This document shows, in pieces, positions 1,311 through 57,603 of a stretch of DNA of 64,000 nucleotides. Source of the DNA: Candidatus Manganitrophus noduliformans (lineage in GTDB: Bacteria > Nitrospirota > Nitrospiria > SBBL01 > Manganitrophaceae). The stretch spans positions 496,001-560,000 of the forward strand of contig NZ_VTOW01000002.1 in assembly GCF_012184425.1 (NCBI RefSeq). Direction: 5' to 3'. The notes beneath the pieces are model-generated. The model saw only the letters and a list, made by a program, of their open reading frames with translations, did not search any database and was not told the origin of the DNA. The number at the start of each line of letters is the position of its first letter. Positions within the stretch are counted from its first letter, which is position 1. The position numbers and the translations under genes were made by a program.

Positions 1311-1348
1311 AATAAAAAAGCCGCCAAATAGAAAATCCTTTGGCGGCT
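1311..1348 (-). terminator. Intrinsic terminator of proximal riboswitch
   Basis: A 10-bp stem AGCCGCCAAA/TTTGGCGGCT is followed on the minus strand by a run of six T. It overlaps the 3' part of the aptamer P1, as expected for a transcription-attenuating riboswitch, and ends about 20 bases before the GTG start at 1290. Confidence 0.85.
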
Positions 1349-1424
1349 CGGCGGACATGGCCTTTCGGCTTTAGCCCCGTTGCTCTGCGTCCCCACCTTT
1401 CGATGGGTTTGCTCTGAGCAAAGG
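1313..1424 (-). promoter_or_regulatory. GEMM-I riboswitch, proximal copy, cGAMP-type (A20)
   Basis: Read on the minus strand, the aptamer has the GEMM-I signatures in order: AGAGCAAAC, a stem capped by a GAAA tetraloop, GGACGCAGAGC, GGGGCTAAA, a second hairpin, and a CCGCCGAGCC 3' side. Aligned to Vc2 by the GAAA loop and the intercalating A47, position 20 is A (base 1413), not G. G20A is the known discriminator for 3',3'-cGAMP recognition in GEMM-Ib switches. The 5' strand CCTTTGCTC (1424-1416) can pair with GAG..CAAAGG (1349-1337), which is also the terminator 5' arm. A bound ligand should therefore block termination (ON switch). Ligand identity is inferred. Confidence 0.85.
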
Positions 1425-1480: not shown

Positions 1481-1515
1481 ATAAAAAAGCCGCCAACGGG
1501 ATTCCCTTGGCGGCT
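1481..1515 (-). terminator. Intrinsic terminator of distal riboswitch
   Basis: The stem AGCCGCCAA/TTGGCGGCT is extended by GGG/CCC and followed by six T on the minus strand. It shares its 5' arm with the aptamer 3' side. Confidence 0.8.
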
Positions 1516-1599
1516 CGGCGGGCATGGAAGAGGAGCGTCTCTTCTTTAGCCCCGTTGCTCTGCGCCCTCTCCTTTCGGAGAGTTTGCTCTGAGCAAAGG
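1483..1599 (-). promoter_or_regulatory. GEMM-I riboswitch, distal copy, cGAMP-type (A20)
   Basis: A second, independent aptamer is transcribed first. It has the same core (AGAGCAAAC, GAAA tetraloop, GGGCGCAGAGC, GGGGCTAAA, CCGCCGAGCC) but different stem sequences, so the stems have co-varied rather than being a fresh duplication. Position 20 is again A (base 1588). The P1 strand CCTTTGCTC (1599-1591) pairs with GAG..CAAGGG (1516-1504) using a G-U where the proximal copy has A-U. The switch carries its own terminator. Two complete switches in series usually give a steeper or two-gate response. Confidence 0.85.
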
Positions 1600-30520: not shown

Positions 30521-31240
30521 CTACGACCTTCTCGCCATCGGAAGATCGACCGTTGTTTTAAAACGAAGGCCCTCCTTACCGCGGCCCCGGAGGATCAATT
30601 CGATCTCCACCGCCAAAGGGAGCTCCTTGGTATTTTCAGAATCCCAGCGATCGACCCAATTCTTATCGGCCCGATTGAGATAGCGGAAATTGATTCCGAG
30701 GACCTCTTCCCCGATCTCGTTCCGGATCACCCGCTCGTTCGCCAGGGCCGCCTCATGCATCAGGAACTCCTCTTCAAGGCCGTAGGAGATCAACGCCCAA
30801 TCCGATTCGGGGGCGTCCCGCAAGGTTCGCCCGTGGGAGACGGCGGTGAACCGGATCAAGTCGTCCGGGTAATCTGTCCCATCGATCGTTCGGGTCCGAT
30901 CTTCTCCCAAAAAAAGAAACGACTTCGTCACCGCCGATCCTGGAGGGAGTTGCGGACTCGTCGGTTGTCCCGGAATCGGTTTCGTCTGATAGATCATGCT
31001 GAGATCTTTCGCCAGATGATAAAAACCGAGCCGCGCCAGGCGGTAAGAATCGGCCTGCTCCTCCAGCTGCTCCGAAACCCGGTAAGTCGCATTAAACGAC
31101 CCGTACACCAGGGTGAAAAGAACCGCCAGAATCGCGAGCGAGACGAGGATTTCCAGGAGGGTGAAACCGCCGGAAGCCCCGCGCCTTCCACCTTCCGCCT
31201 CCCCCCTCCCGCTTTCTCCAATCACGTTAACCTCTCGCAT
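30521..31240 (-). CDS. gspJ: Type II secretion minor pseudopilin GspJ
   Basis: 239 residues from an ATG that overlaps the gspI end by 14 bases. The prepilin leader is long (24 residues, MREVNVIGESGRGEAEGGRR...) and is followed by the cleavage motif GG|FTLLEILVSLAILAVLF. The long leader is encoded largely by a heptamer array (31181-31215), so that DNA does not reach the mature protein. The globular part resembles GspJ (tip complex with GspI and GspK). Confidence 0.88.
   Translation of the reverse strand: MREVNVIGESGRGEAEGGRRGASGGFTLLEILVSLAILAVLFTLVYGSFNATYRVSEQLEEQADSYRLARLGFYHLAKDLSMIYQTKPIPGQPTSPQLPPGSAVTKSFLFLGEDRTRTIDGTDYPDDLIRFTAVSHGRTLRDAPESDWALISYGLEEEFLMHEAALANERVIRNEIGEEVLGINFRYLNRADKNWVDRWDSENTKELPLAVEIELILRGRGKEGLRFKTTVDLPMARRS
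31181..31215. repeat. One-arm heptamer array in gspJ leader
   Basis: Five contiguous 7-bp units start at 31181, 31188, 31195, 31202 and 31209, with consensus CCNCCTY on the plus strand. No opposite arm is visible. It encodes part of the cleaved GspJ leader. Confidence 0.6.
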
Positions 31241-31599: not shown

Positions 31600-31627
31600 G
31601 TAGGGGCGAGGCGTGCCTCGCCCCTAC
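31600..31627. repeat. Perfect GTAGGGGCGAGGC palindrome between gspH and gspI
   Basis: 13-bp arms GTAGGGGCGAGGC/GCCTCGCCCCTAC with a 2-base loop. On the minus strand its first bases supply the gspH TAG stop. The hairpin may stabilise or trim the operon mRNA between the two cistrons. Confidence 0.85.
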
Positions 31628-32223
31628 CTTTGTGAGATTTGAACATCGACATACTCATCCATCACCTTCACCCGGCCGGTCAGGGGATTGACGACCAGGG
31701 TCCACTGCCGCTCCCCTTGCTTCAGATGAATCCAGACCTTCTCCACCCCCACCGGGAAGAACTGCATGAAGGCCTCCCCCTCGTTCACCTTTCCCTGCGC
31801 CGGGGTCACGACATCTTCGAAAGAGATCTCTTTCGGAAGGACCCGCCGCCGGGTCATCGGATCGGTCGCTTCGACGAACTCGCCGTTTTCCCCCAACACC
31901 GCCGCCCAATAAGCGCCATTTTCAAGATTGAAGTAGAGCCGGTAGGTCTGCTTGGTCGTGGAGGATTCTTGGGCGAGATGCTGGATCAACCCGGCGAAGT
32001 GGCGCGCCGTCCGCTTCAGATCGGCCGCGCCGAACGAGGAAACCCGGGGAAAAACAAAGAGCGCCGTCACGCTGAGGATAAAGACGACCAGCATCAATTC
32101 GAGGAGGGTGAAGCCTGATGAAGATCCGCGAGGCGTGAGGCGTGAAGCGTGAGGGGTAAGCCCTTTTAATCTTTCTCGCCTCACGCCGAACGCCGCACCC
32201 CTCCTGTAATTCAGCACCTTCAT
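31624..32223 (-). CDS. gspH: Type II secretion minor pseudopilin GspH
   Basis: 199 residues. The ATG overlaps the gspG stop (TAATG), fixing the start. The leader is exceptionally long, about 38 residues, and Arg-rich. It is encoded almost wholly by a two-arm heptamer element (32127-32206). Cleavage is expected at SSG|FTLLELMLVVFILSV, so the mature pilin is normal. The body has GspH-like features (ARHFAGLIQHLAQES, PLTGRVKV near the end). Its stop codon lies in a palindromic repeat. Confidence 0.85.
   Translation of the reverse strand: MKVLNYRRGAAFGVRRERLKGLTPHASRLTPRGSSSGFTLLELMLVVFILSVTALFVFPRVSSFGAADLKRTARHFAGLIQHLAQESSTTKQTYRLYFNLENGAYWAAVLGENGEFVEATDPMTRRRVLPKEISFEDVVTPAQGKVNEGEAFMQFFPVGVEKVWIHLKQGERQWTLVVNPLTGRVKVMDEYVDVQISQR
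32127..32206. repeat. Two-arm heptamer element inside gspH leader
   Basis: The left arm has five contiguous 7-bp units (32127-32161, consensus CGTGAGG). A 10-base spacer follows, then a right arm of five units (32172-32206, consensus CCTCACG-like, the reverse complement). The arms are inverted with respect to each other and can fold into an imperfect stem. Confidence 0.75.
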
Positions 32224-34037: not shown

Positions 34038-35750
34038 TTAAAATATTTCCTCCTGCGTCACCCTCAATACCTCCTCCGTCGTCGTCATCCCGGACAGGAT
34101 TCTCCGCGCGCCGTCCTCCCTTAAAGTGAGCATCCCCTTGCCGACCGCTTTCGCTTTGATCCGGGACGAATCGACTTTGGAGAGAATCAGGTTTCGAATC
34201 TCGTCGTCGAGGACGAGGATCTCGTAGATGCCGGACCGGCCGCGGTAACCGGTGTTGATGCAGTGGGCGCACCCCTTCCCCCGATAAAAGACCAGGTTGG
34301 GCGGCGCCTGTTTGATTCCGAGCTTTCCCAATTCCTCGGGGGTGGGGCGATAGGAGACGCGGCACTCGGGACAGATCTGCCGGACCAGCCGCTGCGCGAC
34401 GATCGCGACGACCGAGGAGGAGACGAGGAACGGCTCGATCCCCATGTCGAGAAGACGGGTGATCGCGCCTGCCGAATCGTTGGTGTGAAGGGTCGAGAAG
34501 ACGAGATGCCCGGTGAGCGAGGCTTGGATGGCGATTTCGGCGGTTTCGGTGTCGCGGATTTCCCCCACCATGATGACATCGGGGTCTTGCCGGAGGATCG
34601 ATCGAAGCCCGCTGGCAAAGGTGAGCTGGATCTTCGGATTCACCTGGATCTGCCCGATCCCCTTGAGCTGATATTCGATCGGGTCTTCGATCGTGATGAT
34701 GTTTTTGTCGGGCGAGTTGATTTTGCTGAGCCCGGCATAAAGGGTCGTCGTCTTGCCGCTCCCGGTCGGTCCGGTCACGAGGATGATTCCGTGGGCCATC
34801 TGGATCAGCTGGTCCATCGTCGCCAGCCCACTGGGAGAGAGGCCGATATCTTCCAGGTTCAGAAGGATGCTCGTCTTATCGAGGAGACGCAAAACCAACC
34901 GTTCGCCGTGCGCCGTGGGGACGTCGGAGACGCGGATGTCGATCTCCCGGCCCCCGATCTTCAGCCCGATCCGCCCGTCCTGCGGCAGCCGCTTCTCGGC
35001 GATGTTCATCCCCGCCATGATCTTGATCCGGGAGATCAGCGACGACTGCAGCCGCTTCGGCGGCGCGAGGATGTTGTAGAGAACCCCGTCGATCCGGTAG
35101 CGGATGGCGATCTCCTTCTCGAACGGCTCGAAGTGAATGTCGGAGGCGCGCTGCTGCACCGCCTGGAAGAGAACCGAGTTGACCAGGCGGATCATCGGCG
35201 CTTCATCGCTCGCGTCGAGAAGATCTTCCGGCTCCGCCAGCTCCTCCGCCAAGGCGCTCAGGCTCTCCCCCTCGGCCAGATCGGAGATCGCCTGCTCTGC
35301 GCCGACGGTGGCCCGCTCGTAAACATAGTTGATGCTGCTGACGACCACCCGGGAGGGAACGGCGATCACCTCGATCGGCTCCCCCAAAAGCAGCCGCAGG
35401 TCGTCGAGAGGGGAGAGATTGAGCGGATTGGAGGCGGCGACCTGAATGATCTTTCCCGCCCGCTTGAAGGGAAGAAGTTCATAACGCTTCGCGAAGGAGA
35501 TCGGAACCTTCTCCGAAAGGGGGAGATCGATTTCTTTGGGGTCAAGGGAGGCGCGGTAGGGCAATTGCCATTGTTGGGAGAGGGCCTCCAGGACGGCCTC
35601 CTCGGCGAGGACCTTCGACCGGACCAGGATCTCTCCGATCTTGCCCCCCTGCTCTTTTTGAAGGCGAAGCCCCTCTTCGAGCTGTGCGGGGGTCAACCCG
35701 TGTTTTTCGATCAAAATCTGCCCGATGAGCGGGCGTTTCGGCTGTGCCAT
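34038..35750 (-). CDS. gspE: Type II secretion ATPase GspE
   Basis: 570 residues. N1E domain at about 1-150 (GQILIEKHGLTPAQLEEGL). Walker A GPTGSGKTTTLYAGL (about 330) is followed by the Asp box, Walker B DPDVIMVGEIRDTETAEIA and a His box. The zinc-binding Cys module is CPEC..CAHC (about 475-510). It powers pseudopilus assembly. It is third in the operon after gspC and gspD; the gap to gspD holds a two-arm heptamer element. Confidence 0.96.
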   Translation of the reverse strand: MAQPKRPLIGQILIEKHGLTPAQLEEGLRLQKEQGGKIGEILVRSKVLAEEAVLEALSQQWQLPYRASLDPKEIDLPLSEKVPISFAKRYELLPFKRAGKIIQVAASNPLNLSPLDDLRLLLGEPIEVIAVPSRVVVSSINYVYERATVGAEQAISDLAEGESLSALAEELAEPEDLLDASDEAPMIRLVNSVLFQAVQQRASDIHFEPFEKEIAIRYRIDGVLYNILAPPKRLQSSLISRIKIMAGMNIAEKRLPQDGRIGLKIGGREIDIRVSDVPTAHGERLVLRLLDKTSILLNLEDIGLSPSGLATMDQLIQMAHGIILVTGPTGSGKTTTLYAGLSKINSPDKNIITIEDPIEYQLKGIGQIQVNPKIQLTFASGLRSILRQDPDVIMVGEIRDTETAEIAIQASLTGHLVFSTLHTNDSAGAITRLLDMGIEPFLVSSSVVAIVAQRLVRQICPECRVSYRPTPEELGKLGIKQAPPNLVFYRGKGCAHCINTGYRGRSGIYEILVLDDEIRNLILSKVDSSRIKAKAVGKGMLTLREDGARRILSGMTTTEEVLRVTQEEIF

Positions 35751-35754
35751 GATT

Positions 35755-35831
35755 CGCTATCCGTTATTTGTTAATCGTTATTCGTTATTCGGTTTCAACG
35801 CTTAACGGTTAACGTTTAACGAATAACGCTT
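35755..35831. repeat. Two-arm heptamer element between gspE and gspD
   Basis: Exactly eleven contiguous 7-bp units without spacer. Left arm: six units (35755-35796, consensus CGTTATT). Right arm: five units (35797-35831, consensus AACGNTT). On one strand, all units share a TAACG core, direct in the right arm and inverted in the left. This is the clearest copy of the element. Confidence 0.85.
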
Positions 35832-35838
35832 CTCCGGT

Positions 35839-37332
35839 TTACCTGGGGAGGTTGATCAGTTGATTGAAAAATTCCTCGCGGTGCTCCCGCCGTTCCAGAC
35901 GGTTTTCCTCTAGGAACGTCGCGGCCCCCCCGACTTTTCTCCCCCGGATCGTATCGAGATCTCCCGACTCGCGAACCAGGTGCGGGGTGAGAAAGATCAA
36001 GAGATTCGTCTTTTCAAACCGCCGCGATTGAAACTTGAAAAGCCAACCCAAAAGCGGGATATCCCCCAGCAGTGGGATCTTCCGCTGCGTGACGACGACG
36101 TTGTCCCGGATCAACCCCCCGATGACGACGGTCTGCGCGTCGTGGACGATGACGGTGGTGTTCGCCGACCGTTTGTTGGTGGTCGGACCCAGGACGATCG
36201 TGCCGACGGTCTGCGCGCTATCGACCACCGAGGAGATCTCCTGGTAGACGTCGAGTTTCACCAGGTCGTTCTCCAACACCTGCGGGGTGAGCCGCAGGAT
36301 GATCCCGACGTCCCGCCGCTCGATCGTCGTCTGGACGTTTCCGCCGACCGTCTGGCTTTGCGCCCCCGGGAAGGGGACGTTTTGAGCGACGACGATCTCG
36401 GCCTTTTGGTTGTCGCTCGTCAGGATCTGGGGCGTGGACAAAATGTTCACGTCGGTATTCGATTGCAGCGCCCGCAGCAGGGCGCGGATGTTGACCGTCC
36501 CGACCTCCACCCCCGGCACCCGCGCCAGCTCGATCAGGTCGTTCGGGTTCTGGTTGAACCCGCCGATCGCCGCCACATCTCCGCTGTCGGTCGTGTATCC
36601 GAAGACGGCGCCGAGATCGGTCCCGAGCTCCCTGAACTTGTCGGCGGCCATCTCCAGGACCACCGCCTCGACATAGACCTGCCGCCGCTTCATATCGAGC
36701 TTCTGGATCACCGCTTTGAGGACCTCATAGTCCTCGTCGGTCGCGGTGATGATGAGGCTGTTGGTGGTTTTATCGGCGAGGATCTGGACCGTCCCGGTCA
36801 GCTCCCCCGTCGGCCGCGCCGTTCCCCGGCGCGCCGGGCCCGCCGTCCTTGCCACCAGTCCCAGCAGCACCTTCGCCACCTCCTCGGCCTGGGTGTTCTC
36901 CAGCGTGTAGACATGGACCGATCGATCGGGAGGGACCTCGGCGGCCGGCACGATCTGATAGACCGGCCCGCTCTGGACGACGCTGAACCCTTTCAGCTCC
37001 AAAACCGAGAGAAAGAGATCGTACACGCGGTCCACCGGCACCTTCGACGGGGAGAAGATCGTCACCTTTCCCCTCACCCGCTCGTCGATGACGAAATTCC
37101 TTCCGGTCAGCTCGCTGACGAACTTGACGAAAACGGGAAGATCGACATTGTTAAAATCGAGGGTGATGAGCCGTTCATTCGGTGCGGGGCTTTCTTTTTC
37201 CGGGGCCGGGGCTTCCGGCGCTTGAGCGCGAAGGGGAGAAGGGGCCTCGATTCCAATCGCAACAATCATCCAGAGCGCGAGACAGATCCCCGAGAGGACC
37301 GCTCGGGGACAGGCCGCAAGGCGTCTCTTCAT
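35839..37332 (-). CDS. gspD: Type II secretion outer-membrane secretin GspD (short form)
   Basis: 497 residues, against about 650 for classical GspD. A signal peptide is followed by an N0 domain (ITLDFNNVDLPVFVKFVSELTG, about 55-130) and one N1-like domain (VHVYTLENTQAEEVAKVLLGL, about 138-225, with a Gly/Arg-rich insert). The secretin pore follows directly (VEAVVLEM, then SNTDVNILSTPQILTSDN, then VVIGGLIRD). The usual N2/N3 domains and S-domain seem absent. It forms the outer-membrane channel. The short build suggests either a different pilotin route or a shorter periplasmic vestibule. Confidence 0.92.
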   Translation of the reverse strand: MKRRLAACPRAVLSGICLALWMIVAIGIEAPSPLRAQAPEAPAPEKESPAPNERLITLDFNNVDLPVFVKFVSELTGRNFVIDERVRGKVTIFSPSKVPVDRVYDLFLSVLELKGFSVVQSGPVYQIVPAAEVPPDRSVHVYTLENTQAEEVAKVLLGLVARTAGPARRGTARPTGELTGTVQILADKTTNSLIITATDEDYEVLKAVIQKLDMKRRQVYVEAVVLEMAADKFRELGTDLGAVFGYTTDSGDVAAIGGFNQNPNDLIELARVPGVEVGTVNIRALLRALQSNTDVNILSTPQILTSDNQKAEIVVAQNVPFPGAQSQTVGGNVQTTIERRDVGIILRLTPQVLENDLVKLDVYQEISSVVDSAQTVGTIVLGPTTNKRSANTTVIVHDAQTVVIGGLIRDNVVVTQRKIPLLGDIPLLGWLFKFQSRRFEKTNLLIFLTPHLVRESGDLDTIRGRKVGGAATFLEENRLERREHREEFFNQLINLPR

Positions 37333-54315: not shown

Positions 54316-54400
54316 AGGAAATGCAGGTCGCGGAATGCGGACATTGGGGAGACGCGCGCATCGCCCCGGCCGAATCCGCAATCCGCATTCCGCACTTGCC
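54316..54400. repeat. Two-arm heptamer element upstream of patatin gene
   Basis: Left arm: units at 54316, 54323, 54330, 54337 and 54344, consensus GCGGAAT. Centre: 54351-54372. Right arm: units at 54373, 54380, 54387 and 54394, consensus AATCCGC, the inverse. The right arm abuts the stop codon of the next gene. Confidence 0.7.
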
Positions 54401-57523: not shown

Positions 57524-57603
57524 AAGTGAGGAGTGAGGTGTTCGGAGTGAAGAGAGAAAATCTTCCGACTTTACGCCTCACTGCTCACTCCTTACTCCTC
57601 ACC
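57524..57603. repeat. Two-arm heptamer element upstream of second secretin
   Basis: Left arm: five contiguous 7-bp units (57524-57558, consensus GAGTGAG). After 3 bases, the right arm: six units (57562-57603, consensus CCTCACT, the inverse). It lies between the secretin start and the epimerase stop. Confidence 0.85.

What the first reader, a model, noticed from the sequence alone, without database searches (positions are those of the whole stretch)
35755..35831. A family of intergenic elements built from inverted arrays of variable 7-bp units
Seen directly: eleven contiguous heptamers without a spacer, six in one orientation (CGTTATT-like) and five inverted (AACGNTT-like), so all share one TAACG core. 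Three further two-arm elements (32127-32206, 54316-54400, 57524-57603) have the same plan but a different unit each (CGTGAGG, GCGGAAT, GAGTGAG). Both arms of one element always share the unit; different elements do not. Ordinary REP, MITE or CRISPR repeats conserve sequence between copies; here only the plan (7-bp period, two inverted arms, each 4-6 units) is conserved. That points to an unknown generating or maintaining mechanism. I know of no formal description of such a class.
Basis: partly seen in the sequence, partly recalled or inferred. Interest (0 to 1): 0.85.

Follow-up and report, generated by a model that had tools for sequence, protein, structure and literature searches.

The report
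Dispersed hairpins built from seven-base repeats
Between genes inside operons, this bacterium carries many hairpins made of repeated seven-base units, and in sister species the same gap often holds a different hairpin or none; paired seven-base repeats are known from other bacteria, but not with so many unit families swapping places.

Summary
The array at 35755-35831 is exactly as described and the plan is real. In 2.06 Mb from three congeneric genomes, hairpins found without any periodicity criterion include 31 of 150 with a 7-bp period in both arms; 6- and 8-bp periods give none, nor does shuffled sequence. But units are not private to each element: eight or nine unit families recur, each with one polarity, and same-family elements at unrelated loci share unit order and loop sequence, like diverged copies. 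Most lie between co-directional genes, next to a stop codon. Copy number slips by 7 bp between sister species, and whole slots are replaced: one unit family by another, presence by absence, once a c-di-GMP riboswitch. At 32127 the element encodes a prepilin leader in all five species read, with at least two unit swaps. The arms share the unit but not unit order, so pairing does not appear to be selected. Precedents: convergent GGGAATC pairs in Xanthomonas, the Nostoc trnL P6b stem. Y1 transposase and reverse transcriptase are missing from several carriers; the dispersal route is not shown. New variant of a known kind.

The parts
35755..35831 (.). Two-arm heptamer element, TAACG family: 5' arm CGTTATT-like (35755-35796), 3' arm AACGNTT-like (35797-35831); between a gspD-like stop codon and a gspE/pilB-like start codon (both minus strand)
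   Evidence: best-pairing core 35762-35828; same element in G001 and G005, another palindrome in G002, none in G003 and G004
32127..32206 (.). Two-arm heptamer element, GTGAGGC family, inside the ORF of a prepilin: it encodes the leader before the G|FTLLEL processing site
   Evidence: orthologous leaders carry GCGGATT (G001, G005, G003) or GTGAGGA (G002) elements
54316..54400 (.). Two-arm heptamer element, GCGGAAT family, with a second inner stem (GGGGCGATGC..) in the loop; between co-directional genes
   Evidence: conserved in G001 and G005
57524..57603 (.). Two-arm heptamer element, GTGAGGA family, between co-directional genes (epimerase-like gene stop, secretin-like gene start)
   Evidence: orthologous slot in G001 and G005 has GTGAGGC units
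31182..31216 (.). Weak one-arm heptamer array (CCTTCCA/CCTCCGC-like) in the leader of the neighbouring prepilin ORF 30521-31240; G001 and G005 have a GCGGATT element in this slot
   Evidence: Tandem Repeats Finder period 14, orthologous comparison at G005 1115289
31624..32223 (-). Prepilin-like gene whose leader is encoded by the element at 32127-32206
34038..35750 (-). GspE/PilB-type ATPase gene downstream of the element at 35755-35831
35839..37332 (-). GspD-type secretin gene upstream of the element at 35755-35831
   Evidence: family named from the sequence by inspection

Best explanation
Several families of short, dispersed, non-autonomous hairpin elements whose arms are convergent arrays of a family-specific heptamer. 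Inferred history: copies of whole elements (5' arm, loop, 3' arm) reach short spacers between co-directional genes by recombination or an unidentified transposition-like process. There each arm changes on its own by 7-nt replication slippage and point mutation, so that sequence is lost quickly and mainly the plan stays recognisable. Slots turn over by deletion-insertion or by recombinational import of a spacer holding another element, so that an orthologous slot can hold another unit family, another palindrome or nothing. The elements sit where they do little harm (just after a stop codon, before the next ribosome site, in a cleaved leader), are probably transcribed, and are probably near-neutral rather than kept for pairing. 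Shown here: period, recurring families, fixed polarity, whole-unit slippage, slot replacement, location, shared unit order within families. Inferred: the copying step and its route, and near-neutrality.
For: Period 7 only. Families with fixed polarity: 128 inward against 3 outward motif copies, the 3 in one element with misplaced bounds. Non-orthologous same-family elements share unit order beyond unit-permuted versions (F5 z 6.7, F4 3.7, F1 2.8, F2 2.0, F6 1.9) and loop similarity (P 1.4e-6); two neighbouring prepilin leaders in G001 carry elements 89% identical over 107 bp, loop included. Changes by whole heptamers between G001 and G005. Slot swaps, gains and losses, and replacement of a c-di-GMP-I riboswitch present in G001, G005 and G003. 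Lower flank identity at replaced than at kept slots (94.8 vs 97.7%, P 0.012). 39 of 40 outside strong ORFs and 34 between co-directional genes. Arms not matched in unit order and no G-U excess (27 vs 20).
Against: No clean insertion, target duplication or conserved terminus was found; gained and lost slots differ over the whole spacer. No enzyme tested accounts for copying. Families F8 and F9 show no shared unit order (three elements each). Same-family similarity could partly reflect a shared constraint. Neutrality is inferred from tests of limited power.
Confidence: 0.55

Rival explanations
1. Purely local origin: each element arises in place from a chance short palindrome whose arms expand by 7-nt slippage, and template switching between the arms keeps the unit the same. 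No dispersal is needed.
For: Whole-heptamer length changes between sister species; heptamers are reported as the commonest long simple repeats and slippage has been proposed (PMC4679880); template switching in imperfect palindromes is a published process (PMC4060949); no mobile-element hallmark found.
Against: Does not explain recurrence of a few units at unrelated loci with one polarity, shared unit order and loops, or the wholesale swaps. Arm-to-arm copying predicts matched unit order, which is not seen.
Confidence: 0.2
2. Selected RNA hairpins: the elements act in the mRNA between cistrons (3'-end protection, processing, attenuation), and any unit that gives a stable hairpin will do, which is why units can be swapped.
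For: Position after stop codons in co-directional spacers; stable RNA folds; plan kept while the unit is swapped.
Against: No G-U over A-C excess on the sense strand (27 vs 20); pairing no better than with permuted units; orthologous slots without any element exist; selection for a hairpin does not predict a 7-bp period.
Confidence: 0.15
3. Break healing with templated addition: both 3' ends of a double-strand break in a spacer are extended with the same heptamer by a telomerase-like or self-templated polymerase and then joined, giving convergent arms of one unit.
For: Predicts fixed convergent polarity, same unit but unmatched order in the arms, and deletion-insertion at slots. Ku is in 6 of 6 genomes. 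A bacterial reverse transcriptase that makes tandem repeats exists (DRT10, 9-nt repeats; PMC12632851).
Against: RVT_1 is not found in G002, G003, G004 and G005, of which at least G002, G003 and G005 carry elements. Loops of 10-60 bp and shared unit order between loci are not predicted.
Confidence: 0.05
4. Members of the REP/REPIN class moved by a Y1 (RAYT) transposase.
For: Short dispersed palindromes in spacers; G000 and G003 each encode a Y1 transposase.
Against: Y1_Tnp not found in G001, G002, G004 and G005, although G001, G002 and G005 carry elements; no common tag or sequence between families; internal 7-bp period.
Confidence: 0.03

Closest known systems
Convergent GGGAATC (GGGNATC) heptamer repeat pairs of Xanthomonas (Rehm et al. 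2015, PMC4692102)
   Same: Heptamer arrays, always convergent when paired, 70 and 75 pairs in two genomes, intergenic, rare between divergent genes, near stop codons, length differing between species
   Different: One G-rich unit per lineage, discussed as G-quadruplexes; here eight or nine unit families in one genus, many not G-rich, exchanging places at orthologous slots
Nostoc tRNA-Leu intron P6b heptamer stem (Kaasalainen et al. 2015, PMC4476775)
   Same: A stem built from one of two heptamer motifs (TDNGATT or NNTGAGT), with repeated replacement of one motif by the other at one locus
   Different: A single locus inside a group I intron; here many loci, mostly intercistronic, one in a coding leader
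TAACTGA direct repeats of marine Beggiatoaceae (MacGregor 2015, PMC4679880)
   Same: Many intergenic heptamer arrays in one genome, similar arrays in distant phyla
   Different: Direct arrays ending at start codons, only one inverted case
Cyanobacterial short tandemly repeated repetitive (STRR) heptamers
   Same: Intergenic heptamer arrays with several unit types (from my own knowledge; the original papers were not read here)
   Different: Inverted pairing, unit exchange at orthologous slots and polarity could not be compared here
REP / REPIN elements (PMC3733652, PMC3116915; abstracts only)
   Same: Short dispersed palindromes in spacers
   Different: No conserved end tag or sequence, internal 7-bp period, no Y1 transposase found in four of six genomes

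Membership tests
Convergent heptamer repeat pairs (Xanthomonas type) | Head-to-tail units of 7 bp | tested here: met
Convergent heptamer repeat pairs (Xanthomonas type) | Two arrays in convergent orientation | tested here: met
Convergent heptamer repeat pairs (Xanthomonas type) | G-rich GGGNATC unit | tested here: not met
   Units are TAACG, GTGAGG, GCGGA, CAGC and other types; only the GGGGCC and GGGTGT families are strongly G-rich. A relative in plan, not a member by unit
Convergent heptamer repeat pairs (Xanthomonas type) | Intergenic, rare between divergent genes | tested here: met
   39 of 40 outside strong ORFs, 1 of 39 divergent (10% expected, P 0.09)
REP/REPIN | Conserved palindrome sequence with a GTAG or CGTC tag at one end | tested here: not met
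   By inspection no common tag or terminus among 15 TAACG and GGGGCC elements
REP/REPIN | Y1 (RAYT) transposase in the genome | tested here: not met
   Absent from G001, G002, G004 and G005
MITE | Conserved terminal inverted repeats and target duplications | tested here: inconclusive
   No conserved ends across families; no clean empty site to read a duplication from
CRISPR array | Direct repeats of about 20-40 bp separated by unique spacers | tested here: not met
   Contiguous 7-bp units without spacers
Any catalogued RNA family | Rfam match | tested here: not met
   No Rfam match up to E 0.5 at the four window elements

The most novel reading that the evidence does not exclude
A distinct class of dispersed element that conserves architecture rather than sequence: convergent heptamer arms of interchangeable unit families, present in several bacterial phyla, with a dedicated but unknown copying or synthesis mechanism that sets the 7-nt period and the fixed polarity.
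Probability: 0.2. Interest if true: 0.8.

Novelty: new variant of a known kind. Interest (0 to 1): 0.52.

Why it matters
Heptamer repeats are reported as the commonest long simple repeats in most prokaryotic genomes examined, with only a conjecture as to why. This genus offers several unit families side by side, sister genomes at about 97-98% flank identity, and direct cases of slippage, swap, gain, and loss of a riboswitch. That makes the origin of the 7-nt period and of convergent pairs testable. It also shows that such repeats can supply coding sequence (a prepilin leader rebuilt from different heptamer families) and can take the place of a regulatory RNA.

Tried and rejected
(2) A pair-of-arrays test found no pair in the window, probably because contiguous opposite arms merge into one array; it is not used and the hairpin-first scan replaces it. 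(3) A 'conserved core plus free positions' unit model: within-array variation by position is not significant (z 0.8). (4) Mobilisation by a Y1 transposase: not found in several carriers. (5) Reverse-transcriptase synthesis: RVT_1 not found in several carriers. (6) RNA-level selection by G-U excess: not seen. (7) A-rich low-complexity hits at G000 603420 and orthologues dropped as artefacts. (8) The reversed pattern used as control itself hits GCAATNN heptamer arrays in some genomes, so it is not a clean negative. (9) First version of the arm script failed and was rerun.

Full report
OBSERVATION. The 77 bp at 35755-35831 are eleven contiguous heptamers, six CGTTATT-like and five AACGNTT-like. 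The other three elements are present, and Tandem Repeats Finder reports period 7 at all four. The window is G000:C2:496001-560000 of a 5.17 Mb genome.

CHANCE. In 864 kb of this genome, period-7 arrays outnumber all other periods tested from 4 to 15 at score 12 or more, and shuffles give none at period 7. Inverted partners are clearly enriched at period 7. A test that does not presuppose periodicity first collected 150 hairpins with arms of at least 18 bp from 2.06 Mb of three congeneric genomes: 31 have lag-7 identity of 0.6 or more in both arms; lags 4, 5, 6, 8 and 10 give 0, other lags at most 3, and shuffled sequence 0. In 1.3 Mb of loci from mixed phyla, strong period-7 inverted pairs appear in loci labelled Deltaproteobacteria (L062, L094) and Planctomycetota (L084), so the plan is not confined to this genus.

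FAMILIES AND POLARITY. Units recur: TAACG, GTGAGG, GCGGA, CAGC, GGGGCC, GGGTGT, AATTAGG and CATTT types. Within each family the same strand is in the 5' arm: 128 inward against 3 outward motif copies, the 3 belonging to one element with misplaced bounds that reads inward. Four consecutive TAACG units at 7-bp spacing occur in 8 of 198 genomes of the phylum, and several of those loci show the same inward plan. Same-family elements at non-orthologous loci share unit order beyond unit-permuted versions (F5 z 6.7, F4 3.7, F1 2.8, F2 2.0, F6 1.9; F8 and F9 not) and have more similar loops than elements of different families (P 1.4e-6). In G001 two neighbouring prepilin leaders carry elements 89% identical over 107 bp, loop included. 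This is evidence of common descent of whole elements.

ARMS. The two arms of one element share the consensus unit but not the order of unit variants: across 30 elements the observed pairing equals that of unit-permuted arms (Fisher P 0.76). Mismatches between arms are not enriched for G-U over A-C on the sense strand (27 vs 20). RNA folds are stable (z -2.8 to -6.1), DNA folds less so (z -2.0 to -3.1). So the hairpin exists, but no sign was found that base pairing is what is selected. Power is limited because arms hold only about 3-6 units.

TURNOVER AT ORTHOLOGOUS SLOTS. Sister genomes G001 and G005 differ by whole heptamers at several slots. At others the whole slot differs: TAACG versus CAGC (G001 3014178 / G005 1324178), GGGGCC versus GGGTGT-like (G000 707022 and G005 1280493 / G001 3058955), element versus 10 or 37 bp of unrelated spacer (G001 3299659 / G000 315873; G001 3105109 / G000 629981). 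Window 57524 carries GTGAGGA units in both arms where G001 and G005 carry GTGAGGC. Replaced slots have lower flank identity than kept ones (94.8 vs 97.7%, P 0.012; slots sorted by eye), compatible with recombinational import. At G000:C2:767576-767686 a TAACG element stands where G001, G005 and the more distant G003 have a c-di-GMP-I riboswitch (RF01051, 66 bits), with the downstream terminator-like sequence kept; no riboswitch is found there in G000. Presence in the outgroup suggests the riboswitch is ancestral. The GspE slot (35755) has the TAACG element in G000, G001 and G005, another palindrome in G002, and none in G003 and G004.

PREPILIN LEADER. The element at 32127 lies within the ORF of a prepilin and encodes the leader before the G|FTLLEL processing site. 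All five species in which the gene was found have a two-arm heptamer element there: GTGAGGC in G000, GTGAGGA in G002, GCGGATT in G001, G005 and G003. Given the GspE identities to G000 (98, 97, 93 and 88% for G001, G005, G002 and G003) this needs at least two swaps, each leaving an open frame into the mature protein. Start codons are inferred from sequence.

CONTEXT. Of 40 period-7 hairpins 39 are outside strong ORFs (other hairpins: 54 of 107 inside); 34 lie between co-directional genes, 4 convergent, 1 divergent; most begin within 20 bp of the stop codon and many end 10-35 bp before the next start. Gene calls come from a simple codon model of my own, which is why the prepilin leader counts as spacer here. 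The element at G000:C1:850008 ends next to what looks like a tRNA gene (by inspection).

MECHANISM. Shown: period, families, polarity, slippage by whole units, slot replacement, location, shared unit order within families. Inferred: dispersal by copying of whole elements by an unknown route, then independent slippage in each arm, and near-neutrality. Enzymes tested: Y1 transposase is found only in G000 and G003, reverse transcriptase only in G000 and G001; Ku is in all six genomes. A break-healing model with templated heptamer addition fits polarity and unmatched unit order, but lacks an enzyme and does not predict shared unit order between loci.

PRIOR ART. Rehm et al. 2015 (PMC4692102) report 70 and 75 convergent GGGAATC pairs in two Xanthomonas genomes with similar gene context. 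Kaasalainen et al. 2015 (PMC4476775) report a stem built from either of two heptamers that replace one another in Nostoc. MacGregor 2015 (PMC4679880) reports TAACTGA arrays and relays the proposal that 7 nt reflects polymerase contact. What appears new is the number of unit families in one lineage, their exchange at orthologous slots, the use as a prepilin leader, and the replacement of a riboswitch. The paper library holds open-licence papers only, so an earlier description could have been missed.

Noticed in passing
window 1339-1423 and 1505-1597 (minus strand): Two neighbouring c-di-GMP-I riboswitch matches (RF01051, 66 bits; RF03167, 52 bits, below its gathering score), a possible tandem riboswitch.
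   Followed up: no
L141 7576-7686 (G000:C2:767576-767686): A TAACG heptamer element occupies the place of a c-di-GMP-I riboswitch that three relatives keep; the downstream terminator-like hairpin remains.
   Followed up: yes
L154 (G002 GspE slot), G005:C1:1405996-1406062, G005:C1:1214752-1214865, L156: The same spacers in relatives hold other palindromic repeats (GTCATTGCGAGC.., GTAGGGGCGAC.., CAGCAGGCTGCT-type), which resemble GTAG- and CGTC-tagged REPs; slots seem to be exchanged between repeat classes.
   Followed up: partly
L246 (G000:C1:850008-850086): A TAACG element ends about one base before what looks like a tRNA-Ser gene.
   Followed up: no
L062 13515-13599, 15775-15824, 16505-16538: A locus labelled Deltaproteobacteria is rich in CGGCGGTC-type heptamer arrays besides a convergent CGTTCTT/AAGAACG pair.
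   Followed up: no
G039, G053, G010, G020, G064: The reversed control pattern GCAATNN x4 hits many times in some genomes of the phylum (18 in G039, 17 in G053), which suggests another heptamer family there.
   Followed up: no
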